In this document: positions 3,555 through 16,247 of the stretch, in pieces
Numbering within the stretch: position 1 is the stretch's first letter
Layout of the letters: every line of letters starts with the position of its first letter
NCBI RefSeq assembly: GCF_900890425.1
Contig: NZ_CAAHFG010000003.1
Span: 496,001 to 560,000, forward strand
Source of the DNA: Pontiella desulfatans
GTDB taxonomy: Bacteria; Verrucomicrobiota; Kiritimatiellia; Kiritimatiellales; Pontiellaceae
Direction: 5' to 3'
DNA length: 64,000 bases
The notes under the pieces: model-generated
The model's input: only the letters and a program-made list of their open reading frames with translations
Database searches by the model: none
Told to the model about the DNA's origin: nothing
Translations under genes and position numbers: made by a program

Positions 3555-4314
3555 GGTACTCAATTTTTCGGGTGGTGAATTTTTCGAAATCCTTGGTTTC
3601 TCCATCCTCCACGGTTTTCAGTTTCAGCAGGCACTGCGTCCAATTTCCCTGGTCGTCGATGCGCAGGTATTCGTAGTCGTTGGAATCCTTCCGGTCTTTT
3701 TGGGCATAGGCGATCCTCGTGCCCGACATGAGTCCGTTGTCGGTCCAGGCGTAGGCCATCGTGTATTTGATCCGTCCCCGCTCATCGTATCGGGTGTAAA
3801 GTTGTTTCGTGTTGTCCGGTGCGCGCTGGAACTTCGAGAGGGGGAGGGTTCTTTCCCCCTTGTTCTTGATGGTGGACGTCAGTTGGTAGCCCTCGCTGTT
3901 GTAGGTCAGAATCTCGACTTCGCCCGAGAGCTTGCATTGATAGGCGATCTGGCGGGTCGGGGCATTGAGCACGATTTCATAATCGTTGGTCGATCCATGG
4001 CGTACGTCCTCGGTGCGTTGCCGCACCAGGCATCCCGCTTCATTGAACATGTTGGTTGCAAAGTAGGTTTGCTCCCCTTTGCTGTTCCATTTCTTGCGGT
4101 ATTTAAGGTTGCCCGCCCGGTCGTATTCCCGGAATTCCTTGTATTTCCGGTCGGACATGTCGTAGGCGTATTCCTCTTCGACCGATTTCACGGGGCCAAA
4201 GTAGTCGCTCGCCACCCGCGAGGGCACGGCGATATCAAGATGGGTTTCCCCGGCGGAACATATGGCCGGCAAGAGTGCCGCCATCAATAGGCCCAAGACA
4301 TGTTTTCGTTCCAT
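3544..4314 (-). CDS. secreted protein of unknown function, first gene of the S1 protease operon
   Basis: A 256-residue protein with a signal peptide (MERKHVLGLLMAALLPAICSA). The mature part is rich in Tyr, Asp and Arg and contains loosely repeated strands such as YDRAGNLKYRKKWNSKGE and YDERGRIKYTM. These resemble YD-repeat-like beta-hairpin units, but the match is weak. The ATG at 4314 is preferred to the TTG two codons upstream. The gene overlaps the next protease gene by several bases, so the three genes are probably one transcript. It may be a partner or a substrate of the proteases; this rests on position only. Confidence 0.65.
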   Translation of the reverse strand: MERKHVLGLLMAALLPAICSAGETHLDIAVPSRVASDYFGPVKSVEEEYAYDMSDRKYKEFREYDRAGNLKYRKKWNSKGEQTYFATNMFNEAGCLVRQRTEDVRHGSTNDYEIVLNAPTRQIAYQCKLSGEVEILTYNSEGYQLTSTIKNKGERTLPLSKFQRAPDNTKQLYTRYDERGRIKYTMAYAWTDNGLMSGTRIAYAQKDRKDSNDYEYLRIDDQGNWTQCLLKLKTVEDGETKDFEKFTTRKIEYHDE

Positions 4315-4442
4315 TAACAACCCCCAAACACAGGATCGTTGTACCTAATATGGGAACCCCCGAAAAGAAAAGATTGCCATTGGTCTTCGAAAGAGGGTGC
4401 GGAATCGATGAGACGGACGCCCTTCCCGCGACAAAATGGCAC

Positions 4443-4476
4443 CACGCCTGTGCTCACGATCGTGAGCACAGGCGTG
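4443..4476. repeat. 34-bp perfect palindrome, CACG-N8-CACG-AT-CGTG-N8-CGTG
   Basis: Two 17-base arms are perfect reverse complements with no spacer. The centre is CACGATCGTG and each outer end is CACG/CGTG. It lies in the non-coding stretch 4315-4577 between the protease operon and the exchanger gene. No T-run follows on either side, so a classic terminator is unlikely. A second copy of the same architecture with different inner bases lies at 63751-63784. Elsewhere in this stretch I see only a small CCGGAT-AA-ATCCGG hairpin near 4514-4528. Confidence 0.85.
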
Positions 4477-4577
4477 ATGTGGGGCTTTGATTGTAAACCG
4501 GGATGTATTCCGGATAAATCCGGGTTTTTGCTCGAATCGTCCGGGGGCTTCGGCTACCACTTGATGCACCTGCATTC

Positions 4578-5393
4578 ATGATCAAAGACCTCTCCATCCT
4601 GGTGTTGAGCGCGGCCGCAATTGTTGTGGCGGTGCGCTTTCTGCTGGTTCCGGGCATCGGGAGGATCGGGGCGGCGCTGAAGTTTTCCGCCAAGGTGCGC
4701 GGCCAGATGATCGGCTATGCCACCAGCGTGCCCGAATTCACCGTGCTTGTTGCGGGGGCGCTCAACGGGGTGTTCGATGCCGGCATGTGGAATATTGTGG
4801 CTTCGAATGTCGTAAACTGGGTGCTCTTTCTCCTGACGGTTTTCGCTTTCCGCCAGCAGCTCGACCTGAAGAACAAGGGCTTTGCCGATGAACTCGTTTT
4901 TGGGGTTTTGTCGGTCGTGGTTCCGTTGCTGATGTTTGCCGCCCACATTGGAACCAGCTATGCGACAGCTATCGGGTTGATCGCCTTTTTCATGGTCTAC
5001 AAGGTGATGGACAAGCGCCTCAACAAGGCCGGCAAGCCCGCCGTGCTGCCGCCCGGCGCAGAGGGTGGGACGCTATGGGGCGGGGGAGGCATGTTGCTTC
5101 TCGGTATCGTGCTAATCCTGCTTTCCGGGCGATTTCTCGGGAATAGCGCCGAGGCGTTGATCACCCAATTGAACGTGCCCGCTTGGGCGGTTGGTTGGAT
5201 CCTCGGCCTCGTGACTTCCGTATGCGAGCTCGCTTCGTTCATCGAGATCTACCGCATCCATAAACCCAAGGATTCTCCGGAGCATATCAAGGATACCCAG
5301 GAGGCGCTGGATGCCCTGGTTGCATCGAACATCGCCAATCTCGCCCTGATCCTCCCGCTCGGGATGGTGATCTATCTGGCGCTTTCAAGCTAG
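4578..5393 (+). CDS. CaCA-type sodium/calcium exchanger-like membrane protein
   Basis: A 271-residue polytopic membrane protein with about nine hydrophobic segments. Two related motifs mark the alpha repeats of the cation/Ca2+ exchanger superfamily: GYATSVPEF (about residue 47) and GLVTSVCELASF (about 210). Each carries the acidic residue expected in the ion path. The protein is shorter than typical prokaryotic exchangers (300-350 residues). I see no good ribosome-binding site before the ATG. It converges with the PP-loop gene, leaving 19 bases between the stops. The transported ion cannot be deduced. Confidence 0.72.
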   Translation: MIKDLSILVLSAAAIVVAVRFLLVPGIGRIGAALKFSAKVRGQMIGYATSVPEFTVLVAGALNGVFDAGMWNIVASNVVNWVLFLLTVFAFRQQLDLKNKGFADELVFGVLSVVVPLLMFAAHIGTSYATAIGLIAFFMVYKVMDKRLNKAGKPAVLPPGAEGGTLWGGGGMLLLGIVLILLSGRFLGNSAEALITQLNVPAWAVGWILGLVTSVCELASFIEIYRIHKPKDSPEHIKDTQEALDALVASNIANLALILPLGMVIYLALSS

Positions 5394-5412
5394 CACGGCG
5401 TGGTTTTCGGGG

Positions 5413-6408
5413 CTATTGCGGGGTAATCATGAGTTGCTTGACGGCATCGGGATCCATGGGGATGACCTCGATGGTGTGCGATCCTGAACCGTTGGTAATT
5501 TCCACCGTGCAGGGCTGGTCCTTTGGGGTCTTCGCATAACGGGCGCAGATGGCCGCCGCGGTTTCCAGCTGATCCTCGCGGGCATTCGGCGGGGCGATTA
5601 CGAGCGGGCTGGGAAGGGTGGGGCAGGTGATGCGGTAATCGTCCGGGTGGGCCTTTTCGTCGAGCAGCTCGTTGTCTTCCTTGCAGGAGCCGACGATGAT
5701 CTTCACATCGTCCGCGAGGCGCATGTGGCGTCCTGTGGGCAAAAGCCAAACGTTGGTGCGGTCGGCATCGGGGCCTTCGTGGTCGAGCAGGTCCTTCAGC
5801 TTTTTGCCGAAGCGCTCCTCGGTCAGCAGGCAACCGCCGGCCGGGGTGGGGTAGCTGGTAATGCCGAAATGTTTCGCCAGCTCCATCTGCGGGGTGCGGT
5901 TGCGCCCGGAAAAACGCGGCAATTTTCCGGCATCGATCCACCCTTCGCGGATGGGCTTCGTGGGCGGCAGCAGGCTGGCGCTGAGGGGGCGGACGATGAG
6001 GTCTTCATATTTCGAGCAGCGCGCCACCACGCCCAGGCTCTGCTTGTTCTGCGACATCGGCCGCTGGGCCAGCACCTCGCCGGTGGCAATGAAGTCGAAG
6101 CCCCATTCCTCCAGCAACTCCCCGGCGCGCATGATCATGTGCGCATGGCAGTCGATGCAGGGATTCATGGCGCCGCCCAGCCCGTGGGCGGGATGCTGCA
6201 CCTGCTCAAGAATGTCTTCGGTGAAGTCGATGATGTGAAGCGGGATGTCGAGCGCCTTTGCCGCAGCTTCGGCCTTATCCGTTCCGAAAAAGGGACTGTT
6301 GTAGACGATGGCCTCCACGTGGACGCCCTGTTCGCGCAATACGCAAACCGCGAGCTGGCTATCCAGCCCGCCGGAAAGGAGGGAGAGTGCCTTGTATTGT
6401 TTTTTCAT
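5413..6408 (-). CDS. PP-loop ATPase, MnmA/ThiI-like tRNA sulfurtransferase family
   Basis: A 331-residue soluble protein. The N-terminus carries the PP-loop SGGLDS (residues 12-17), which binds ATP and adenylates the target base. Cysteines in PCIDCH (about 84 and 87) and GGCLL (about 194) fit a catalytic thiolation pair or a metal site. It resembles the short TrmU-like or ThiI-like proteins found in anaerobes rather than full MnmA, whose C-terminal part is not recognisable here. The exact tRNA product (2-thiouridine or 4-thiouridine) cannot be decided. AAGGA lies at good spacing before the ATG. Confidence 0.72.
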   Translation of the reverse strand: MKKQYKALSLLSGGLDSQLAVCVLREQGVHVEAIVYNSPFFGTDKAEAAAKALDIPLHIIDFTEDILEQVQHPAHGLGGAMNPCIDCHAHMIMRAGELLEEWGFDFIATGEVLAQRPMSQNKQSLGVVARCSKYEDLIVRPLSASLLPPTKPIREGWIDAGKLPRFSGRNRTPQMELAKHFGITSYPTPAGGCLLTEERFGKKLKDLLDHEGPDADRTNVWLLPTGRHMRLADDVKIIVGSCKEDNELLDEKAHPDDYRITCPTLPSPLVIAPPNAREDQLETAAAICARYAKTPKDQPCTVEITNGSGSHTIEVIPMDPDAVKQLMITPQ

Positions 6409-6470
6409 GATAAGTCCTTGTCTGGGAAAACGTTTGCTGATGTCCGCACCATTTGGATCAAAGTCAGCGT

Positions 6471-7343
6471 TTATCCGTGTTGTTCCGTGGCGGAACTTCG
6501 GCGAAATAGGTTCAGCTGCCAGGCCACGATGACGGCGACCGCGATCATGACCGCCGAATAGAGCTGGCCTTTGGTGAGCCAGCCAAGATAGATGGTGCTG
6601 TCCGGTTCGCGGAAAAACTCCATGGCAATGCGGGCGAGGGCGTAGAGCGCAAGATAGCTGATGCTGGGCGCTCCCGGTCGCTTGCCCCAGGCCGTTCGGC
6701 GCAACAGCATCATGATCCCGAAAACCAGGAAACCTTCCGCAAAGGCTTGGTAGAGCTGCGAGGGATGGCGGGGGACCAGCTGCCCGGCCTCCACCATCCT
6801 TTCAATCTCGGGAATGGTGTATTGGCCATAGTGAAGATGGGCGGATTGCGGGAAAACCACCGCCCATTTAACATCCGATGCCCGTCCCCAAAGCTCGCCG
6901 TTCACAAAGTTGGCCAGCCGGCCGAAGGCAAAGCCCAGCGAGGTCGTCACCGCCATGTGGTCGGTCAGGTTCAGGAAATGGTGATGGTTCTTCTTGGCGT
7001 ACCATACCAAGAATAGGATCACGCCGATGAACCCGCCGTGGCTCGCCATGCCTCCATCCCAAACGCGGAAAACATAGAGCGGATCCTCCAAAAAGGAGTC
7101 GAAACCATAGAAAAGCACATAACCCAGCCGCCCGCCCAGAAACACGCCGAAAAAGGCCAGGAGCACAACAAAGTTGCTAACCTCCTTCTCCGGCACCTCG
7201 AACTCGCCCCGCTTCGACCACCGGCGCAGCAACAGGATGCAGGCAATAAACCCCATCAAATAGGAAATGCCATACCACCGAACCGCCAATGGCCCCCCAA
7301 TCTCCAGCAGGATCGGATTAATGTTGTGGATGTAGTGCGTCAT
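6471..7343 (-). CDS. lgt: prolipoprotein diacylglyceryl transferase
   Basis: This inner-membrane enzyme moves diacylglyceryl from phosphatidylglycerol to the lipobox cysteine, the first step of lipoprotein maturation. The 290 residues hold about seven membrane segments. Family motifs are clear: RWYGISYLMGF near the N-terminus, WDGGMASHGGFIG (about 98-110) with the conserved His-Gly-Gly, and GRLANFVNGELWGR (about 140-153). The length is normal. Several predicted lipoproteins are encoded in this window, so the substrate class is present. It lies 62 bases downstream of the next gene's region and is not clearly in an operon. Confidence 0.95.
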   Translation of the reverse strand: MTHYIHNINPILLEIGGPLAVRWYGISYLMGFIACILLLRRWSKRGEFEVPEKEVSNFVVLLAFFGVFLGGRLGYVLFYGFDSFLEDPLYVFRVWDGGMASHGGFIGVILFLVWYAKKNHHHFLNLTDHMAVTTSLGFAFGRLANFVNGELWGRASDVKWAVVFPQSAHLHYGQYTIPEIERMVEAGQLVPRHPSQLYQAFAEGFLVFGIMMLLRRTAWGKRPGAPSISYLALYALARIAMEFFREPDSTIYLGWLTKGQLYSAVMIAVAVIVAWQLNLFRRSSATEQHG

Positions 7344-7361
7344 TCCGCTAAACAGGAAAAT

Positions 7362-7381
7362 GGGAAGAGCAAGCTCTTCCC
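7362..7381. terminator. short hairpin upstream of lgt
   Basis: GGGAAGAGC and GCTCTTCCC pair with a two-base loop between the start of lgt and the stop of the next gene upstream. No long T-run follows, so it may be a weak terminator or a processing site. Confidence 0.35.
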
Positions 7382-7391
7382 GGAACCCTGC

Positions 7392-7415
7392 AAAACGCTA
7401 CCCTGTTAGCGTTTT
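7392..7415 (-). terminator. intrinsic terminator overlapping the stop of the HEAT-like gene
   Basis: Arms AAAACGCTA and TAGCGTTTT enclose a six-base loop. The TAA stop of the minus-strand gene lies inside the stem. Both sides end in A/T runs, so it could act in both directions. Confidence 0.6.
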
Positions 7416-8341
7416 CCTTTTTTCCGTTTTTCGTTTGCGCGGACGGTGTCGATTTCTGCCGCCAGTTTCGGGGTTAGCCAGAATTTTTGCATGAAATCGA
7501 ATTGTTCGTTTGTGTCATTCAGCTTCGCCTCAACCGTCTCGTGGTCGCGTGTGATATAGGTGGTGAGGAGGAGCACGCGCTGGCCGGCGTATCCGGAAAC
7601 CTCAACATAGAAACTTTCAATTCCGAGTCCGGATACCCACTTCTCCAGATCAGTTGCAGCGGCATTCTTATCCTGGTTCTTTGTTGTGAAGACATAGAGC
7701 CGGGGCTGGGTGGATGGGAGGTTCAGGTAGTTTTCGGAATTAGGTGGATTTCCTCCAGTCAAATCCCGGTAGATTTCAAAATAGGCGATGGACGACTCAT
7801 CCTTTATTTTCCCCGCCAGATAGTTTTTCGCGTGGGTCTTATTTTCGGAAATAGCAACGATGATCCGGTCGTAAAGGTTTTCTTCACGGTTTACAACCGC
7901 AGCTTCAACAAGCTCCTCGATCAATTGATCGGACTTTGGTTCGACCTGGGTGAGGCCATAGTGGAGGGCGTTGTAGCGAACATCGGCCGATTCATCTTTG
8001 GAAAGCTTTTGCAATATGGCCAGCGCCTCTGGATTGGAGGGATTTTTACCTTCAATGAAATGCTCGCCAAGCAGACGGGCGGTCACGCTGCGAATGGAGG
8101 AGGCTTTATCTGTCGAGCAGGCCTTGAATCCCGGAAGATAGCTCTCGTTTATGGTTTCTCCAGTCTTTTCGCGGGTAATCGTGGCAAGCGCATGCATTCT
8201 CATGGCGGTGGAGTTGAAGCTAAGCACTTGTTGTATGGAATATTGATGGGCTGTCGCCGGCGTGTTGGTTGGTGCTTGGGCATTTGATAGGGATGCCAGT
8301 ACGAATGCAGAAAGGCTCAGCATAGCAAATGTTTTGTTCAT
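7406..8341 (-). CDS. secreted HEAT-like repeat protein of unknown function
   Basis: The start is ATG 8341, preceded by AAGGAGAA at good spacing, giving 311 residues. A signal peptide (MNKTFAMLSLSAFVLASLSNAQA) leads into helical pairs such as STDKASSIRSVTARLLGEHF and DESADVRYNALHYGL. These look like HEAT/armadillo-type repeats of about 35 residues (about residues 50-190). The last 100 residues are a mixed region ending in a Lys/Arg-rich tail (ANEKRKKGKR). The role is unknown; HEAT arrays usually bind proteins. Confidence 0.6.
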   Translation of the reverse strand: MNKTFAMLSLSAFVLASLSNAQAPTNTPATAHQYSIQQVLSFNSTAMRMHALATITREKTGETINESYLPGFKACSTDKASSIRSVTARLLGEHFIEGKNPSNPEALAILQKLSKDESADVRYNALHYGLTQVEPKSDQLIEELVEAAVVNREENLYDRIIVAISENKTHAKNYLAGKIKDESSIAYFEIYRDLTGGNPPNSENYLNLPSTQPRLYVFTTKNQDKNAAATDLEKWVSGLGIESFYVEVSGYAGQRVLLLTTYITRDHETVEAKLNDTNEQFDFMQKFWLTPKLAAEIDTVRANEKRKKGKR

Positions 8342-8454
8342 GTAGGTTCTCCTTAAAGTGATTGCGCTACAAAAATAGGCAATAGGCCGGGTGAAAACAA
8401 GCAACATTGTGCAGTCAGAATTGAGCCATAATCCGATAGGATGCTAGTGGAGGA

Positions 8455-8487
8455 AAATGCCGTCCGTCCAAAAGACGATCGGCATTA
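8455..8487 (-). terminator. intrinsic terminator of the PEP-CTERM gene
   Basis: On the minus strand AATGCCG, a short mismatch, CGTC and a TTTTG loop fold back on GAC and CGGCATT, followed by TTTTCC. The gene's stop codon sits in the first arm. Confidence 0.6.
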
Positions 8488-9102
8488 GCGGGACTTTTTC
8501 AGGCGACGGTTCGTTAGGAAAAATGTGATGGCCCCGATGCCCAGGAGTGATGTGGTTGAAGGTTCCGGAATGACAGCGTTCTCGTAGACTGATATCCGAT
8601 TGGTCGCCAGTGCATCTTTAGCCTGACCCAGGTCATACATTTCCGGTAGCAATGGTGGGACTATGGTTTTGTCTATATTAGACATGGTTTGTACATGACC
8701 GACATAGAATTTGCTCCCGTATCCGGCGTCTTCTGTGTTGAAGATGCGACCGTACACTTTTCCGTTTCCGAGGTAGCCGACATCTACTCTTCTGTAAAAC
8801 AACGCCCACTCCTCGTAGGGTTGGCCTGTGTTTTCATAAACGAACTGATCTAGGAGGATATCGTCTCCTTCAACTCCGCCTCCGATGTAAAGGGTTGATC
8901 CTTGGTAATAGTCGGGGATGCCGTTGTCCCCCGCATAGAGAAGTTGAACCAAGGCTTTGTCGCCCGTGTTGGGAAGAAGGGGGGTGTTGCCGGTCGGGTC
9001 GGATCCGTCGGCAAATCCCCACATCGTCAAGAAATCCAGATAGAAATCTGAAAACACGCTGCCGCACAGCATTACGCAGGTGGTTAGTATAATTCTTCTC
9101 AT
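8485..9102 (-). CDS. small PEP-CTERM-anchored secreted protein
   Basis: The start ATG 9102 follows AGGAGGA. A signal peptide (MRRIILTTCVMLCGSVFS) opens a 205-residue protein. The C-terminus has the sorting signal AVIPEPSTTSLLGIGAITFF followed by NRRLKKSR. In this family an exosortase removes the tail and anchors or exports the protein; no exosortase gene is in this window. The middle (DFLTMWGFADGSDPTG, LLPNTGDKALVQLLYAG) resembles the later PEP-CTERM protein at 17.3 kb only in general style. The function is unknown. Confidence 0.8.
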   Translation of the reverse strand: MRRIILTTCVMLCGSVFSDFYLDFLTMWGFADGSDPTGNTPLLPNTGDKALVQLLYAGDNGIPDYYQGSTLYIGGGVEGDDILLDQFVYENTGQPYEEWALFYRRVDVGYLGNGKVYGRIFNTEDAGYGSKFYVGHVQTMSNIDKTIVPPLLPEMYDLGQAKDALATNRISVYENAVIPEPSTTSLLGIGAITFFLTNRRLKKSR

Positions 9103-9259
9103 GCTTCCTCCTGTCTTAAAGAATTTTTCGATTGTGGGTTTTGATATCGTGTTTGTCAATTGAATGCATTTTTTTTGCATTTTCCCCGGGAGACTCGGTC
9201 AGTGCGTTTTTAGCCATTCCTGCTTGTTGAATAGTTGAGAGGCACTATATAACGTCCTA

Positions 9260-12205
9260 ATGAAAACTATATCCCTTCTGTTTTTCTTCTCGGGTATCGC
9301 CGCGCTCACCTATGAAGTGCTCTGGGTTCGTCACCTGGGTCACATTTTTGGCAATACGGTCTATGCCGCCGCCACCGTCATGATGACCTATATGTTTGGT
9401 TTGGCGTTGGGGTCGCATTTTGCTGGAAAGTGGGCAGCCAAGATTAAAAAACCAGTTCAAATGTTCGGTATTTTGGAAGTGGCAACTGCGTTTTATGCAC
9501 TTTGCGTGCCGCTCATTTTTAAGCTGATCCAGGTGCTTTATCGTTTCTTTGCCCTTCATGTTTCCGATTCGTTTGCCGTTCTCACGGTAGTTCGTGTTGT
9601 TCTTGCATTGGTGTTGCTGCTGATTCCTACCGCCATGATGGGGGCAACCCTTCCCGTGCTGTCCAAAGGGTTCCTTACCCGGGTGGAGCGGTTTGGCTCT
9701 CGCTTGGGTATTCTTTACGGGGTCAACACGCTGGGCGCGGTTTCCGGCGTTTTATTGGCTGGGTTCGTCTTTATTCCTAAACTCGGCATGAGCCTTACCA
9801 ACGTGGTGGCCGTCTGTCTAGATGCTTCTGTTGGCTTCATCGCCATCTATCTTTCGCGTACCATGGATAGCTCGCCGGAGATCGCCGAGGCGATAAAGCT
9901 AGAAGCACAATTAGATAAAGGAAGCTTCAAGCGTGGCAAGGTGGCAACCGGGTTGTTGTTGGCCATTGGTGCTTCCGGTTTTCTTTCCCTTGCTTTCGAG
10001 GTCGTCTGGTTCCGGGCGCTGATTTTGGTGTTTGGTTCCACCACCTATTCCTTTTCCGCCATGCTCGGCGTATTCCTGATCGGCCTTTCGATCGGTTCCA
10101 TGATCATCAGCCGTTTTGCCGACAAGGCGAAGCGTCCGGCCGCCATCTTTGGCGCGGCCGCCATGCTGACCGGTATCTACAGCCTGGTTTCCATGGGCTG
10201 GTTTACGCTGATGCCCGAATATTTGCTGGAAAGCCTGATGCTCAAGGGAACTCCTGGGTGGGGGCGGATGATCATGCTCAAGTTTATGATCACCCTTATT
10301 TTCCTGCTCGTGCCCACCATTCTTTTCGGAGCATCCTTCACGGCGGCGGTCAAGGCCATCCGGGCGGCGATGAATTCCTCCCCGCGCGCTGTCGGCGAAG
10401 CCGCCATGTTCAACACGATTGGTGCGGCGCTGGGTGCCTTTTTTGGCGGATTCATCCTGTTGCCAGCCATTGGCATGGAAAAGTCGCTCATTGTATGCGC
10501 TTTCTTGATCCTGGCCTTGGGACTGGCCCTCAGCCTGACGTCGGCAACGGCCAAGTGGGCTAAGATTCTGGCGGTGGTAGTGGCGGTTCTGGCGCTGGTT
10601 GGAACCTTGATCAGCCCACCGCACTGGGACAAGCAGATCATGTCGTCGGGCCCCTATTTTGGGCCGTGGAACTATGTCAAGGATGGCAAGGTCACCCTTA
10701 TGGAGCAGCTGCGGCAGTTTCGCTTGCTCTATTTTAACGAGGGGATCACCTCCACGATTTCGGTGGTGAAGGATTCCAACGAAGATCTGATGTATTGCAG
10801 CCAGGGTAAGGTCGAGGCCGACACCTCCGAGCGAAGCATGATGTTGCAGCGTATGATGGGTCACCTGCCTATGCTGTTTCATCCCAGTCCCCAGCGCGCC
10901 GTCAATATTGGTCTGGGCGCCGGGGTCACCTTTGGTGCAGTGAGCTGTTATCCGGCCGAGCACCTCGAGGTGGTTGAATTCGAGCCCAGCGTGGTGAACA
11001 TTGCCAGGGTATGGGGCGAACGGAACCATAATGTTGTCGATAAACCCAATGTAACGGTCACCATTAACGACGGTCGCAATCATCTGTTTGTTGGGGGCGA
11101 GCCCTACGACGTGATTACCTCGGACCCTTTCGAGCCGGTCATGGCTGGAGCCGCCAATCTTTATACCGTCGATTTCTTCGAGCTGGCGAAGAGCCGCCTG
11201 GCTGAGGGTGGCATCATGGCGCAATATTTGCCGCTCTACGAATTGTCCTATGAAGACTATTCGATGATTATGCGCTCCTTCGCCAAGGTCTTCCCGGACG
11301 CGCTGTTGTTCTTTACCGGATTCGATTCGATCATGCTTGGTGGAAAGGGCGATTTGGCGCTGACGCTTCCTGTCGCGAAGGAAAAATTTGAGATTCTCGA
11401 GGTCAGGGCCTCTCTTGCCGATGTCGGTTTCACGAAACCTGAAATGCTCTTGAGCATGTTTGTGGCTCGTCTTTCGGATGACGTCCATCTGTTTAGGGAG
11501 GGTAAGCTTAATACTGATAACCATCCCTATGTCGAGTTTGCCGCTCCCAAAAGCACCTTCCGCTATACACCGGATGAAAACCAGCAGACCCTGCTGGAAA
11601 ACTATTCCCCGATGCCGAAATTCCTGCTTGAGGGACTCGATGAAGAGCAGAAAAAGATCGTCCAGGATTCACATAAGGCTATGCGTATGATGCTCGAAGC
11701 CAATATTTTCCGGGCTCAGGAAAACTATAAGAAAAACATCAACCTTTTGATGGAGGCCGCGAAGCTGGCGCCTGAAAACCCGGTCATCGCCAATGAGCTT
11801 GGGTCTAGTCTCATGATATCCGCTAATTCGGTGGCGGCGGCGGGGTATGCCCAGCAGGCCGTTTTGCAGTATGAGCTAGCGCTTAAATACAAGCCTAATG
11901 AATTTAATGCCATCTATCGGCTTGTGAATTTGAACATGCGATTGCAAAACCTTGAAAAAGCCAACCAGTATTTGGAAGAAGGGTTGAGGCGCTTCCCGGA
12001 TTCGCCGTTGTTCATTGCTTTGCGTGGGCGTATTAAGGGGACGTTGGGTGATTTTCAAGGCGCGGCTACGGACATTAATGTGGCCATCGAGATGCTCCCG
12101 GAATATGTAGATTTTTGGGTGGACTATGAAAAGGCGTTGCGGGTCTTGGGCGATGCGAAAGGCGCGAACGAAGCGAAGCGGCAGATCGAGCGACTTTCCC
12201 TCTAG
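9260..12205 (+). CDS. fused MFS-like transporter / spermidine synthase-like protein with TPR tail
   Basis: A 981-residue protein in three parts. Residues 1-450 hold about 12-14 membrane segments of the MFS-like fold usual in fused MFS/spermidine synthases (for example MGATLPVLSKGFLTRVERFG). Residues 530-730 are a SpeE-like Rossmann domain with the nucleotide loop INIGLGAGVTFGAV, an acidic strand VVEFEPSVV, NDGRNHL and TSDPFEP. Residues 790-981 form TPR-like helical pairs. Spermidine synthase activity is not assured in such fusions, as the substrate-binding residues vary. A second family member follows 32 bases downstream, so the two probably work together. TTGTTG/TATATA-like boxes near 9224-9251 would place the transcript start almost at the ATG. 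Confidence 0.8.
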   Translation: MKTISLLFFFSGIAALTYEVLWVRHLGHIFGNTVYAAATVMMTYMFGLALGSHFAGKWAAKIKKPVQMFGILEVATAFYALCVPLIFKLIQVLYRFFALHVSDSFAVLTVVRVVLALVLLLIPTAMMGATLPVLSKGFLTRVERFGSRLGILYGVNTLGAVSGVLLAGFVFIPKLGMSLTNVVAVCLDASVGFIAIYLSRTMDSSPEIAEAIKLEAQLDKGSFKRGKVATGLLLAIGASGFLSLAFEVVWFRALILVFGSTTYSFSAMLGVFLIGLSIGSMIISRFADKAKRPAAIFGAAAMLTGIYSLVSMGWFTLMPEYLLESLMLKGTPGWGRMIMLKFMITLIFLLVPTILFGASFTAAVKAIRAAMNSSPRAVGEAAMFNTIGAALGAFFGGFILLPAIGMEKSLIVCAFLILALGLALSLTSATAKWAKILAVVVAVLALVGTLISPPHWDKQIMSSGPYFGPWNYVKDGKVTLMEQLRQFRLLYFNEGITSTISVVKDSNEDLMYCSQGKVEADTSERSMMLQRMMGHLPMLFHPSPQRAVNIGLGAGVTFGAVSCYPAEHLEVVEFEPSVVNIARVWGERNHNVVDKPNVTVTINDGRNHLFVGGEPYDVITSDPFEPVMAGAANLYTVDFFELAKSRLAEGGIMAQYLPLYELSYEDYSMIMRSFAKVFPDALLFFTGFDSIMLGGKGDLALTLPVAKEKFEILEVRASLADVGFTKPEMLLSMFVARLSDDVHLFREGKLNTDNHPYVEFAAPKSTFRYTPDENQQTLLENYSPMPKFLLEGLDEEQKKIVQDSHKAMRMMLEANIFRAQENYKKNINLLMEAAKLAPENPVIANELGSSLMISANSVAAAGYAQQAVLQYELALKYKPNEFNAIYRLVNLNMRLQNLEKANQYLEEGLRRFPDSPLFIALRGRIKGTLGDFQGAATDINVAIEMLPEYVDFWVDYEKALRVLGDAKGANEAKRQIERLSL

Positions 12206-12237
12206 GTTTTATAAAAGCTAATCCTTTTAAGGCGCCC

Positions 12238-14304
12238 ATGAAAAAGAATCTCCTGTTTCCGTCAACGGTATTTCTCGGGGCGTTCCTGTTGTTTCAGGTT
12301 CAGCCGTTGATCGGGAAATATTTCCTGCCGTGGTTTGGTGGCACTTCCTCGGTCTGGACAATCTGTCTGTTGTTTTTCCAGTTGCTGTTGTTGGGTGGTT
12401 ATGCTTATGCGCATTTCCTGCAGCGCTTTGCCCCGTGCCGGCAGGTGATGATGCATTGCTCGCTGCTTGGGGCAGTCATATTAGTGGGGATCGCTTTGTT
12501 TTTTGTGTGGGGCAACCCTATCCTTCCTTCCGCCGATTGGCGTCCGGAGAACAATTTATGGCCCGCGTGGAGTGTGTTCCGGTTGTTGTTGGTGAGCATT
12601 GGCGCTGCCTATTTTCTGCTCGCGGCGAACACTTCGTTGCTACAGGCATGGATGCATAAGGCCGATTCTTCGAAGTCGCCTTACGTTCTTTATATTGTTT
12701 CGAACACGGCCTCTTTGCTGGCTCTGTTGGGGTATCCTTTCTTGGCGGAGCCCTTCTTTGCCTTGAAGACGCAGGCGTTTCTTTGGAGTCTGGGGTTTAT
12801 TGTCTATGCGTTGCTTTGTGCACTAGCTGCGAGGCATGTTCGGGATATTTCGGCATCGGCTGTAAATCAGGATGCTGCTCTAGGGAGTTCCTCCCCGGGA
12901 TGGCGAAGATACCTCGCTTGGATAAGCCTGTCGGCATGCGGGGTGCTAGTGCTCATGGCGATCACGAATCAGATGACACAGGATGTTCCTCCGGTACCGT
13001 TCCTTTGGGTGCTTCCGCTGGCGCTCTATCTGCTAAGTTATATTGTTGGTTTCATGGATCGTTTGGCCATAGGAAAATGGAACGATGTCTACCTCTATAT
13101 CCTGGTTGTTGGGTGTTATCTGGCATGGTATCTGATGGAAAAGGGTTCGGTCATTGGATTGATTCCGCAGATAGCTGGGTATGGTTTGGTGCTCTTCTCG
13201 CTATGCCTTTTTTGCCACAACGGACTATATCGCCGGAGGCCGGAGCCGCGTTTCCTGACCGGTTTTTATTTATCGATCTCCCTGGGCGGTGTGTTGGGGG
13301 GTATCTTTGTGGCGATTGTGTCGCCAGTTGTTTTTAGCCATTACTGGGAATATCAGATCAGTCTGGTTCTTGCCGCAGTGCTTGCAGTGTTCACCGTGTA
13401 CGCCGATAAGAAGAGCATGTTCCATGTGGTTCGCCATGCGCTCTGGATTCCTGTCTTACTATTGGGGTTCAATGTTTCAAGGGATGCTGTCGAGGAATCC
13501 GGGAAGTCGGTCTATATCTCCCGCAACTTTTTCGGCAAAGTCTACGTGGCAAAAAAGGCCCAGATGGACAATACCGTCATGTCCTATGAGCTCAAGCATG
13601 GGCATATCACGCATGGATTGCAGATCGATCATCCCATTTATCGCAAATATCCCACCACCTATTATACGGAGAAGGGGGGCGGGGGGCTCGCCATTGTCAA
13701 GCATCCGAAAAGGCGCCTAGGCCAGCCTATGCATGTTGGGTTGCTTGGCATGGGCATCGGAACGCTTGCGGCTCATGGGCAGGAGGGCGATGTCTTTAGG
13801 TTCTACGAAATCAATCCCGAGGTAATCAACCTAGCCACCAATAGCCCATGGTTTACCTATGTGGGCGATTCGAAAGCGAATGTGGAGGTTGTCTGTGGGG
13901 ATGGTCGCATGGCCATGGAAGACGATCTGAAAGCGGGCATCTCAAAATTCGATGTTTTGGCAATCGATGTGTTTAGTGGCGACCAGGTGCCGGTGCATAT
14001 CATCACTAAAGAGGCTTTCGGTCTATATCTGGAGCTATTGGAGGAGGATGGCCTGATTGCCATCCACATTAGCAATCGATATTTGGACCTAGCCCCTGTG
14101 CTCAAGGCGGCCGCAGGTCACTACGGCCTATATTCCTCCCTGATCACCACCCCGAAAAAAGGATTCAGCAGTCAGACAACGTGGGTGTTGATGGGGCGGA
14201 GCGAACGGTTGGTTGAGAAGATTAGTCCCTCCGGTATCGGCGGGGAGGTTTCCAGGCTCTGGACGGATGACTTTAGCAATCTGTTTTCTGTGCTGCGGAA
14301 ATAG
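12238..14304 (+). CDS. fused MFS-like transporter / spermidine synthase-like protein
   Basis: A 688-residue protein. Residues 1-440 are strongly hydrophobic with about 12 membrane segments. The C-terminal domain (about 480-680) is a SpeE-like methyltransferase fold with VGLLGMGIGTLAAHG, FYEINPEVINLA, CGDGRMAM and LAIDVFSGDQVP. It lacks the TPR tail of its upstream neighbour. The stop TAG ends at 14304, and its last bases lie in the 10-bp target duplication of the ISAs1 element, so the insertion just missed the coding sequence. The metabolite handled is unknown. Confidence 0.8.
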   Translation: MKKNLLFPSTVFLGAFLLFQVQPLIGKYFLPWFGGTSSVWTICLLFFQLLLLGGYAYAHFLQRFAPCRQVMMHCSLLGAVILVGIALFFVWGNPILPSADWRPENNLWPAWSVFRLLLVSIGAAYFLLAANTSLLQAWMHKADSSKSPYVLYIVSNTASLLALLGYPFLAEPFFALKTQAFLWSLGFIVYALLCALAARHVRDISASAVNQDAALGSSSPGWRRYLAWISLSACGVLVLMAITNQMTQDVPPVPFLWVLPLALYLLSYIVGFMDRLAIGKWNDVYLYILVVGCYLAWYLMEKGSVIGLIPQIAGYGLVLFSLCLFCHNGLYRRRPEPRFLTGFYLSISLGGVLGGIFVAIVSPVVFSHYWEYQISLVLAAVLAVFTVYADKKSMFHVVRHALWIPVLLLGFNVSRDAVEESGKSVYISRNFFGKVYVAKKAQMDNTVMSYELKHGHITHGLQIDHPIYRKYPTTYYTEKGGGGLAIVKHPKRRLGQPMHVGLLGMGIGTLAAHGQEGDVFRFYEINPEVINLATNSPWFTYVGDSKANVEVVCGDGRMAMEDDLKAGISKFDVLAIDVFSGDQVPVHIITKEAFGLYLELLEEDGLIAIHISNRYLDLAPVLKAAAGHYGLYSSLITTPKKGFSSQTTWVLMGRSERLVEKISPSGIGGEVSRLWTDDFSNLFSVLRK

Positions 14305-14312
14305 CTGCTGCA
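14303..14312. repeat. left target-site duplication of the ISAs1 element
   Basis: AGCTGCTGCA here is repeated exactly at 16238-16247 on the other side of the element. Ten bases is within the usual ISAs1 range. Confidence 0.75.
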
Positions 14313-16237
14313 CAGTACCAATTGACGAGAGACCCTAATCCTTATTCCGACAAGGGAATGTGAAAATAACCTGGTAACATCCTGCCCTGTATGCTCCACT
14401 ACGGAGCATGGAATCGACTAAAATACCTACAGAGCAGGATGTCTTGGACAAGGTAACCGTTCGCCTGATCCTCGAACATGAAAAAGAGCAATGGAATGCC
14501 TTTATTGAGAAGGAGCACTATCTTCACAACCCGACGCTCGTGGGCGAGCAGCTGCGCTATGTCGCCGAGGTGGGCGGCCGATGGCTGGCCCTGCTTTCGT
14601 GGAGCGGGGCCGCGTACCACATTGCCGGCCGCGACCGCTGGATCGGTTGGTCGGACATGCAGCGGCGCAATCGCCTGCACTTCGTCGTTTCGAATAGCCG
14701 CTTCCTGCTGCGCACCGGCCGCGGGGAATATCCGAACCTGGCCTCGCGCATCCTGCGGCTGAGTCTGGCGCGGCTGGATGGCGACTGGTGCGAACGCTAC
14801 GGGCACGGCCTGCTGCTGGCCGAGACGTTCGTGGATATCGAAGCGTATGCGGGCACCTGCTACAAGGCCTCGAACTGGATCGAGCTGGGGAGAACCAAGG
14901 GCTTCGAGCGGGCGGGCACCGATTACTACGAACCCCATGCCCGGCCGAAGCGGCTCTTCATCCGCCCGCTGCACCGCAAGGCGCGGGAGCTGCTGAGCGC
15001 TCCCGAGCTGCCCGATGCGTGGGGCGCCCAGGAGCGTTGCTTCCATCCGGGTTGCACCGTGAAAACCCCGCAACTGCGCTCCATCTTCGGCCAGTTCAAT
15101 GCCGTGCCCGATCCCCGGGCCGTTCGCGGGCGGCGCTATCCGATCGGCTGCCTGCTGAGCATCGCCGCCTGCGCCGTGCTGGCCGGGGCGCAGGGATACG
15201 AGGCCATCGCCGACTATGCCTCCCATCTCACCCAGCCCCAGCGCCGCGCCCTGCGCTGCTGGAAACGGCGCAACGGCGCGTACGACGCCCCGTGCGCGAC
15301 CACGTTCTGGGAGCTGTTCAATGCGATCGACCCCGACCGGCTCGATCAAGTGGTCTGCACCGTTCTCAAAGAGCTGCAGGGCGAACGTCCCGCAGCCATT
15401 GCCGTCGATGGCAAAACCGTGCGCAGCACCCGCCCGGACGCGGAGCACGACAACAAGCTCAACCTCTTCGCCGCCCTGGCGCACGAACAGGCCATCGTCC
15501 AGAACCAGATCGCCATCGACGACAAGAGCAACGAAATCCCCGCCCTCGCGGATCTGCTCGAACCGTTGGAGCTCGACGGAACCGTCGTCACCGCCGACGC
15601 CCTCAACACCCAGCGCGAAAGCGCGCGGCATATCGTGCAGGACAAGGGCGCCCACTACGTGTTCACCGTAAAAGACAACCAGCCCGGCCTGCGCCAACGG
15701 ATCGAACAGCGCCTCTCGGGGCGCACTTTTTCCCTCAGCCCGCCGCACCGTTGACAAAGCCGGCGGACAAACCATCGAGCGCCGGATCATCGCCGCGCCC
15801 GTCACCGCCTGCGGGATCGACTTCCCCTTTGCCGCCCAGGTCTTCATGATCCGCCGCAACCGAACCAAAGGGGCCGAAAAGACAACGGAAACCGTCTGCG
15901 GCATAACCGACCTCCGCCCGGACGAGGCCGACGAGCACCGGTTGCTCGCGCTCAACCGCGGGCACTGGAGCATCGAAAACAAACTGCACCTGCCAAGGGA
16001 CACCACCTACCGCGAAGACCACAACCGCATCCGCAAGCGCAACGGGTCTCATGCGCTGGCCTCAATGAAGAACCTGGCCATCGGCCTGCACGCCCTCGGC
16101 GTATTCAATACGCGCAAATCCCCCTGCAAAACCATCCCGAAAATGAACCGCAAACTCGCCCGGAACCCTCAAATCGCAATAAATTTCTGTATAACCCCTT
16201 ATAACAACAGACTACTGCAATGAACTGAATGCTACTG
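14313..16237 (+). mobile_element. ISAs1-family insertion sequence, about 1.9 kb
   Basis: The element is bounded by the 10-bp duplication AGCTGCTGCA. Its left end begins CAGTACCAAT. The reverse complement of its right end begins CAGTAGCATT. The terminal repeats are therefore short and imperfect, but share CAGTA at the tips. It carries one transposase gene, broken by a frameshift. It inserted directly behind the stop of the spermidine-synthase-like gene. Confidence 0.75.
14408..16223 (+). pseudogene. ISAs1 transposase with N-terminal DruA/DUF4338 domain, frameshifted
   Basis: The first frame (14408-15754, 448 codons) begins with a domain of about 200 residues resembling DUF4338, the family of Druantia protein DruA (motifs LVGEQLRYVAEVGGRWLALL, LAETFVD, YYEPHARPKRLF). 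An ISAs1 transposase follows, with the N-terminal helper region (about 215-300) and catalytic Asp in AVDGKT (334) and TADAL (397). Near 15717-15740 the reading shifts by +1. The remaining part (SARRTVDKAGGQTIERR through HWSIENKL, which carries the catalytic Glu) lies in the third frame and ends at 16223. No -1 slippery site would produce this shift, so the gene is probably inactive, unless the base run there is a sequencing error. Confidence 0.8.
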
Positions 16238-16247
16238 AGCTGCTGCA
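16238..16247. repeat. right target-site duplication of the ISAs1 element
   Basis: Exact copy of AGCTGCTGCA at 14303-14312. The non-coding DNA from here to the next gene (about 300 bases) shows only a probable promoter near 16471-16499. Confidence 0.75.

What the first reader, a model, noticed from the sequence alone, without database searches (positions are those of the whole stretch)
14313..16237. DruA-like domain fused to an ISAs1 transposase in an element with target duplication
The transposase gene begins with about 200 residues resembling DUF4338/DruA, the Druantia defence protein of unclear function. Finding it as the N-terminal part of a transposase in an element flanked by the 10-bp repeat AGCTGCTGCA supports a transposition-linked origin or role for DruA. 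The gene has a +1 frameshift between the second Asp and the Glu.
Basis: partly seen in the sequence, partly recalled or inferred. Interest (0 to 1): 0.62.

Follow-up and report, generated by a model that had tools for sequence, protein, structure and literature searches.

The report
DruA-fused transposon with programmed slippage
A small bacterial jumping gene carries, in front of its transposase, a domain shared with a phage-defence protein and resembling a phage DNA-modifying enzyme, and its apparent reading-frame error is a conserved switch rather than damage.

Summary
Window 14313-16237 is a 1,925-bp ISAs1-family element with a 10-bp target duplication (AGCTGCTGCA). Its ORF1 starts with a PF14236/DruA domain (80.5 bits, cut-off 27). 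Two corrections follow. (1) The frameshift is not a mutation. In 26 of 26 readable DruA-ISAs1 relatives the gene changes frame at a homopolymer or two-tract run (2.1 runs expected). The direction is +1 in some and -1 in others. TnCn sites are all +1 (7/7), and the seven plus one C8 site all follow a hairpin (8/8), as at the Roseiflexus T5C5 transcriptional-slippage site. Identical split copies with their own perfect target duplications show that split elements move. (2) DruA is not structurally enigmatic. The modelled domain is GNAT-fold and its closest solved structure is phage Mu Mom, a DNA adenine-modifying enzyme (Z 13.3, next 11.1). Mom's essential serine aligns with an invariant DruA serine. 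Of 50 DruA ORFs examined, 33 are fused to a transposase (26 ISAs1, 6 IS4/Tn5, 1 IS701). Others adjoin IS66, IS1182-like or Tn7-like transposase genes. A transposition-linked role is supported; a transposon origin of Druantia DruA is not shown. DruA-less ISAs1 elements have similar ends and duplications, so DruA is an accessory.

The parts
14303..14312 (+). left copy of the 10-bp target site duplication AGCTGCTGCA; it starts inside the stop codon of the preceding ORF (12238-14304)
14313..16237 (+). ISAs1-family insertion sequence, 1,925 bp, with two overlapping reading frames
14391..14409 (+). inverted repeat ATGCTCC-actac-GGAGCAT over the GGAG and the start codon of ORF1; could sequester initiation
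   Evidence: fold -12.4 kcal/mol for 50 nt; also in L034
14408..15754 (+). ORF1, 448 aa: DruA domain, DDE_Tnp_1-associated domain, first part of the DDE domain with both Asp
14474..14905 (+). DruA (PF14236/DUF4338) domain as matched by Pfam, residues 23-166
   Evidence: fold model of residues 1-215
15092..15355 (+). PF13808 DDE_Tnp_1-associated domain, residues 229-316
15407..15409 (+). first catalytic Asp codon (AVDGK)
15596..15598 (+). second catalytic Asp codon (TADAL)
15709..15724 (+). hairpin with a 6-bp perfect stem, two bases 5' of the slip run
15727..15734 (+). slip run TTTTTCCC (T5C3) where ORF1 passes to the +1 frame
15672..16223 (+). ORF2 open frame (+1), no start codon before 15846; encodes the part of the DDE domain with the catalytic Glu
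15975..15977 (+). catalytic Glu codon (HWSIENK)
16238..16247 (+). right copy of the target site duplication

Best explanation
This is an intact-looking ISAs1-family insertion sequence whose transposase is made in two forms. Normal reading gives an ORF1 protein (DruA domain, DNA-binding region, both Asp but no Glu) that cannot catalyse transposition and may act as a regulator. A minority of transcripts lose one base at the T5C3 run, helped by the hairpin just upstream as RNA polymerase passes. These transcripts encode the full DruA-DDE transposase. The DruA domain is an accessory that DDE elements have acquired repeatedly. It is a GNAT-fold domain closest to phage Mu Mom, with its conserved residues intact, and most likely acyl-modifies nucleic acid (element ends, target or new copy). 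Shown: domain content, split, run, hairpin, duplication, fold match, recurrence with other transposases. Inferred: that slippage is transcriptional, that ORF1 alone regulates, and that DruA is an active nucleic-acid acyltransferase (about 0.4 on its own).
For: Split at a run in 26 of 26 readable loci, against 2.1 expected from the run rate elsewhere in the same ORF1s. Direction is not conserved: at least 6 changes on the tree, the sign Antonov 2013 uses for transcriptional realignment (PMC3711429, passages). Polarity fits the rU:dG rule: TnCn 7/7 +1, CnTn 9/12 -1, Fisher p 0.003, and the three exceptions contain a C10, C10 or T7 tract. A hairpin 0-4 nt 5' of the run in 8 of 8 TnCn or C8 sites, combined p 1.2e-5, as in the Roseiflexus T5C5 element (PMC5009743, passages). 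Movement of split copies: two T. syntrophicum plasmid copies, identical across the 2,057-bp element, with different perfect 10-bp duplications; perfect 9-10 bp duplications beside inverted ends in 12 of 23 scanned loci. DruA: model pLDDT 86, top hit Mu Mom by Foldseek (2.7e-7) and by VIA-align (Z 13.3 vs 11.1); profile-profile match to Mom 97.9% over 181 columns; 18 invariant residues in 29 sequences; Mom's S124A position aligns with invariant S113. 33 of 50 DruA ORFs fused to a transposase.
Against: No RNA or protein data. A first, flawed hairpin measure gave no enrichment (p 0.22 for +1 and 0.69 for -1 sites); the significant one was defined afterwards. CnTn sites show no hairpin excess (4 of 9, p 0.41). 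The 26 loci are not independent (window, L034, L035 are close; so are L109, L014 and L106, L107), and some are decayed copies. Pfam Mom (PF25680) does not reach E 1 in the window protein; Mom's invariant Glu and Asp are not invariant in DruA. DruA-less ISAs1 elements move without it. Only one copy in the host genome.
Confidence: 0.68

Rival explanations
1. The frame change is recoded by the ribosome (programmed +1 or -1 frameshifting) instead of by RNA polymerase.
For: Slippery homopolymers also promote ribosomal shifts; one -1 site (L021/L124, C6T6) has the register of a classical heptamer (read from the sequence).
Against: Both directions occur within one family and switch at least 6 times on the tree. 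The CnTn runs of -1 sites lie in three different registers to ORF1 (6, 2 and 1 loci), which tandem tRNA slippage does not predict. The review passages seen state that no IS with +1 ribosomal frameshifting had been identified.
Confidence: 0.17
2. The gene is simply broken by an indel, in this copy and in others by chance.
For: Some loci are clearly decayed (L137 and L100 carry extra stops, L107 a second frame change, L038 lacks the end). Long runs mutate easily.
Against: 26 of 26 readable loci are split, always at a run; DruA-less ISAs1 in the same kind of search are single-frame in 10 full-length cases. Identical split copies in four contigs of one genome and on two plasmids of another.
Confidence: 0.04
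3. ORF1 and ORF2 make two separate subunits that assemble, without any recoding.
For: ORF2 has an internal ATG at 15846.
Against: That start would drop about 35 residues that align with relatives; no start codon precedes it in the open frame. Does not explain why the change always sits on a slippery run.
Confidence: 0.06
4. The DruA domain is a non-catalytic DNA-binding or target-choice module in transposases.
For: It sits N-terminal to three unrelated transposase families and beside TniQ in a Tn7-like operon, positions often used by targeting parts (recalled).
Against: The most conserved residues (H37, N96, R98, S113, E139, GTCYKASNW) include the position of Mom's essential serine.
Confidence: 0.3
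5. The DruA domain acylates a protein, RNA or small molecule, for instance of the host, in the manner of ordinary GNAT enzymes.
For: Many ordinary GNAT structures match with Z 10-11.
Against: Mom ranks clearly above them (Z 13.3) and is also matched by sequence profiles.
Confidence: 0.25

Closest known systems
ISAs1 insertion-sequence family (NF033564)
   Same: Transposase, DDE residues, 9-10 bp target duplication, CA-GG type ends in most relatives
   Different: Extra N-terminal DruA domain of about 215 residues and a gene split over two frames; the full-length DruA-less members found here are single-frame
Roseiflexus IS630 T5C5 transcriptional slippage (review PMC5009743, passages)
   Same: T-run followed by C-run, hairpin immediately 5', loss of one base needed, product is the transposase
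   Different: Other transposase family; here related elements also use CnTn and AnGn runs in the opposite direction, and slippage is not yet shown
DruA of Druantia (PF14236; PADLOC PDLC00001/2)
   Same: Same Pfam domain above cut-off; profile match 96% over the N-terminal half
   Different: No PADLOC match for the window protein; no Druantia genes in the element; here fused to a transposase
Phage Mu Mom (PF25680, PDB 8bv8)
   Same: GNAT-type fold, top structural match, near full-length profile match, serine position
   Different: 16% identity in the structural alignment; Mom's invariant Glu and Asp not kept throughout; no activity shown

Membership tests
ISAs1 insertion-sequence family | transposase matches family model above cut-off | tested here: met
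   NF033564 134.5 bits vs 70 for ORF1; C-terminal part 48.9 bits in ORF2, below the cut-off alone
ISAs1 insertion-sequence family | D, D, E catalytic residues | tested here: met
   D at 15407 and 15596 in ORF1, E at 15975 in the ORF2 frame
ISAs1 insertion-sequence family | 8-10 bp target duplication (length recalled) | tested here: met
   AGCTGCTGCA on both sides
ISAs1 insertion-sequence family | terminal inverted repeats | tested here: inconclusive
   window copy CAGTA plus weak matches; clear in relatives
Programmed transcriptional realignment | frame change at a slippery run, conserved in homologues | tested here: met
   26 of 26 readable loci, 2.1 expected
Programmed transcriptional realignment | both frame directions within one family | tested here: met
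   12 loci +1, 14 loci -1; at least 6 changes
Programmed transcriptional realignment | 5' nascent-RNA hairpin at TnCn deletion sites | tested here: met
   8 of 8 TnCn/C8 sites, p 1.2e-5, measure refined after a negative first try
Programmed transcriptional realignment | transcripts with an inserted or deleted base | not testable with these tools
   no RNA data
DruA domain PF14236 | Pfam score above gathering cut-off | tested here: met
   80.5 bits vs 27
Druantia defence system | DruE helicase and other Dru genes beside DruA | tested here: not met
   element holds only ORF1 and ORF2; the two flanking ORFs tested have no Pfam match; the window protein has no PADLOC match; genes further off were not scanned for Dru proteins
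Mom family | Pfam PF25680 above cut-off | tested here: not met
   not listed at E 1 for the window protein; a fusion relative, L080, passes with 28.3 vs 27.1
Mom family | fold | tested here: met
   best match 8bv8, Z 13.3, 169 residues, 3.9 A
Mom family | essential serine (S124 of 8bv8) | tested here: met
   aligned with invariant S113
Mom family | adenine acyl modification activity | not testable with these tools
   needs biochemistry

The most novel reading that the evidence does not exclude
DruA/DUF4338 is a Mom-like DNA base-acylating enzyme that DDE transposons (ISAs1, IS4/Tn5, IS701, IS66, IS1182-like, Tn7-like) have taken up many times to mark element or target DNA. The mark would shield the transposition intermediate or new copy from host nucleases, or tell self from non-self. 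The Druantia and DndF versions would be the same marking enzyme turned to defence. In ISAs1 elements its dose is set by a transcriptional-slippage switch that makes a DruA protein without transposase activity in excess.
Probability: 0.2. Interest if true: 0.88.

Novelty: new variant of a known kind. Interest (0 to 1): 0.68.

Why it matters
Finding it fused to or beside several unrelated DDE transposases, with a fold and key serine shared with Mu Mom, turns 'unclear function' into a direct biochemical test: does it acylate DNA bases? The conserved slip sites also offer a natural series in which run polarity and a 5' hairpin predict frame direction, a clean system for RNA polymerase slippage. 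They warn that such transposases, annotated as two genes in at least one complete genome, may be whole.

Tried and rejected
Sequencing or assembly error and private mutation were rejected by conservation of the split in 26 of 26 readable loci and by identical split copies. A first hairpin test, which allowed any fold of even length 14-32 nt with both ends paired, gave p 0.22 (+1) and 0.69 (-1). It skipped short and odd lengths and counted multi-stem folds; the second test used single perfect stems. Both are reported.

Own-genome copies as a test of the split: only fragments of the right end were found besides the window copy. PADLOC on the window protein gave nothing. PDB by sequence gave nothing useful. 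Mom loci from viral contigs were too alike to make a profile, so phage records were used.

Rows dropped before counts: of 30 distinct ORF1s, L011 and L098 end at contig ends, and L101 and L095 (minus strand) lack the C-terminal part. Truncated copies such as L015, L019, L020, L024, L037 and L039 failed the length and coverage filter and were not judged. L107, L100, L137 and L038 are kept although damaged elsewhere. L107 was first reported as frame 0 because of a second frame change downstream and was set to -1 by eye. L013 was placed by eye. One DruA-less copy, L170, is also out of frame; it has a T7 run nearby and may be slippage or decay. L092 and two sister copies, L028 and L095 (plus strand) have inverted ends but no perfect duplication.

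The tree does not make DruA-bearing ISAs1 one clade (p-AU 0.029): DruA-less, unsplit L175 falls beside L110 and L036. So DruA was lost or gained more than once, and the DruA-split association rests on few independent changes.

Full report
WHAT IS THERE. The window lies in an 8.66-Mb genome. A 10-bp repeat AGCTGCTGCA flanks 14313-16237 and occurs nowhere else in the window. ORF1 (14408-15754) has PF14236 DruA at residues 23-166, then PF13808 and the start of PF01609, and NF033564 ISAs1 up to model position 183. The rest of the ISAs1 model (237-312) is read in the +1 frame. The genome has one PF14236 match, this one, and two fragments resembling the right end of the element.

THE FRAMESHIFT IS CONSERVED. 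Relatives came from one scan of genome contigs (34 loci), searches of 97 and 387 genomes of the phylum and plasmid records. A tblastn filter (ORF at least 300 aa, matching from before window residue 60 to beyond 230) left 30 distinct ORF1s. In four the end is missing. In the other 26 the C-terminal part lies in another frame, +1 in 12 and -1 in 14. In all 26 the overlap of the two frames contains a slip-type run: TnCn, CnTn, AnGn or a homopolymer of 7 or more. The rest of the same ORF1s has 15 such runs in 30,882 nt, which predicts 2.1 in the 4,335 nt of overlap. Most changes lie between the second Asp and the Glu; L009, L077 and L083 shift earlier, between the two Asp, so the device has arisen at more than one place in the gene.

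CONTROLS. With the ISAs1 model, DruA-less copies covering the whole model are in one frame without stops in five cases in 194 genomes of the phylum and five in 150 genomes of Pseudomonadota. One further full-length copy holds a stop. One DruA-less copy (L170) is out of frame. DruA fusions to the Tn5-type transposase are single-frame (761 and 765 aa), so the split goes with DruA-ISAs1, not with DruA in general. On the ISAs1 tree DruA-less, unsplit L175 sits with DruA-bearing L110 and L036; only two changes of the label are needed, so the association rests on few independent events.

DIRECTION AND HAIRPIN. The review passages seen (PMC5009743) say that an IS of Roseiflexus slips on T5C5 to lose one C, needs a hairpin just 5', and tolerates one rU:dG but no rC:dA mismatch. 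By that rule TnCn should allow loss (+1) and CnTn gain (-1); the CnTn half is my inference. Found: TnCn 7 of 7 +1; CnTn 9 of 12 -1, and the three exceptions contain C10, C10 and T7 tracts, which can slip either way; Fisher p 0.003. Both AnGn sites are -1, as in the paramyxovirus case of the same review. All eight TnCn or C8 sites have a perfect-stem hairpin ending 0-4 nt before the run, against about 30% of background positions (combined p 1.2e-5); CnTn sites do not (4 of 9, p 0.41). In the window it is a 6-bp stem at 15709-15724, two bases before T5C3. An earlier looser measure found nothing. The eight sites fall in about five lineages. Direction changes at least six times on the tree. Antonov et al. 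take non-conserved direction as the mark of transcriptional realignment (PMC3711429, passages).

SPLIT COPIES MOVE. Two plasmids of Thiodictyon syntrophicum hold copies identical over the 2,057-bp element, each with its own perfect 10-bp duplication (CCTCGCAGGC, GATACCCTGG); the records annotate them as an ISAs1 transposase plus a hypothetical protein. One genome has four contigs with identical ORF1 copies, without duplications in the three that could be read. Of 23 loci scanned, 12 have a perfect 9-10 bp duplication beside inverted ends (L001 there is the window copy). DruA-less elements have CAGGG ends and 9-10 bp duplications in L172, L174 and L115.

THE DruA DOMAIN. An alignment of 29 domains, 7 from ISAs1 elements and 22 mostly from stand-alone genes, has 18 invariant residues. 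The model has pLDDT 86 and pTM 0.83. Foldseek's best PDB match is Mu Mom, 2.7e-7; VIA-align gives Mom Z 13.3 over 169 residues at 3.9 A, with the next entry at 11.1. PHROG 1384 (Mom-like) matches the window domain at 1.1e-4, and Pfam Mom passes its cut-off in L080. Profile against profile, DruA and 16 Mom-like sequences align over 181 columns at 97.9%. The 8bv8 structure carries S124A, an inactive mutant; that serine aligns with DruA S113, invariant in 29 of 29. Against: Mom's invariant Glu (ELNR) and Asp (SFAD) are not invariant in DruA. PMC10853773 (passage) already names DUF4338 a GNAT domain, found on DndF.

RECURRENCE WITH TRANSPOSASES. Of 50 PF14236 ORFs from the phylum searches, 26 also match PF13808 (ISAs1), 6 PF14706 (IS4/Tn5) and 1 PF13546 (IS701 by NF033540), 33 in all; the rest are stand-alone or cut. 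Of 22 loci with mostly stand-alone DruA (L040-L061), 8 have an IS1182-like ORF and 3 an IS66-like match nearby, one (L058) is a Tn5-type fusion, and 10 gave no match to the six query proteins used. The IS1182 call rests on NF033551 at 1e-16 and 1e-22, below its cut-off. In NaphS2 DruA sits in multi-copy units with IS66 ORFs. In L239 a PADLOC-type DruA follows TnsB, TnsC and TniQ.

WHAT IS KNOWN. DUF4338 is in 3 papers of the library, 2 of them with 'transposase'; DruA, Druantia and transposase together in 9. I read passages of PMC10853773 and PMC8565338 among these and saw no fusion described. PMC12458937 (passages) mentions Druantia but no transposase. ISAs1 with frameshifting or slippage terms gave lists; the passages read from PMC3281130 and PMC5009743 name IS1, IS3, IS5 and IS630 as frameshifting families, not ISAs1. 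Antonov's DDE_Tnp_1 clusters, +1 and -1, could include ISAs1 members.

VERDICT.

Noticed in passing
L239 (G644:C1:2594500-2613500), 4125-12242: DruA (PADLOC PDLC00002, E 4e-80) in a co-directed row TnsB-TnsC-TniQ-DruA-unknown-HerA/mad8, a Tn7-like transposon operon; no other Dru protein among the six ORFs scanned.
   Followed up: partly
L041-L044, L046, L047, L050, L052, L158, L160: An IS1182-like ORF of about 530 aa directly beside stand-alone DruA; below the NCBIfam cut-off, no Pfam match in L158, so a divergent transposase group.
   Followed up: partly
L162:2645-4952: IS66 transposase split over two overlapping ORFs, immediately followed by DruA; the unit recurs in L163 and L166.
   Followed up: partly
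L009, L077, L083: Slip runs (A8G2, T9, T7) at an earlier place in the gene, between the two Asp codons.
   Followed up: partly
window 14391-14409: Inverted repeat over the ribosome-binding site and start codon of ORF1, also in L034; would hide the start in read-through transcripts.
   Followed up: partly
L002 (G000:C3:1248991-1249097) and L003 (G000:C3:583929-584011): Remnants of about 80-110 bp, 75-78% identical to the right end of the element, elsewhere in the same genome.
   Followed up: partly
L106 and L107 (G409): Two copies in one genome differ in run length (C10T7 and C7T5), so the slip run itself mutates.
   Followed up: no
L108 (G326:C127): PF14236 matches split over a 1,220-aa ORF, a different and larger DruA protein.
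   Followed up: no
window 9260-12205 and 12238-14304: Two long membrane-protein-like ORFs upstream; the second has no Pfam match at E 1; the element begins just after its stop codon.
   Followed up: no
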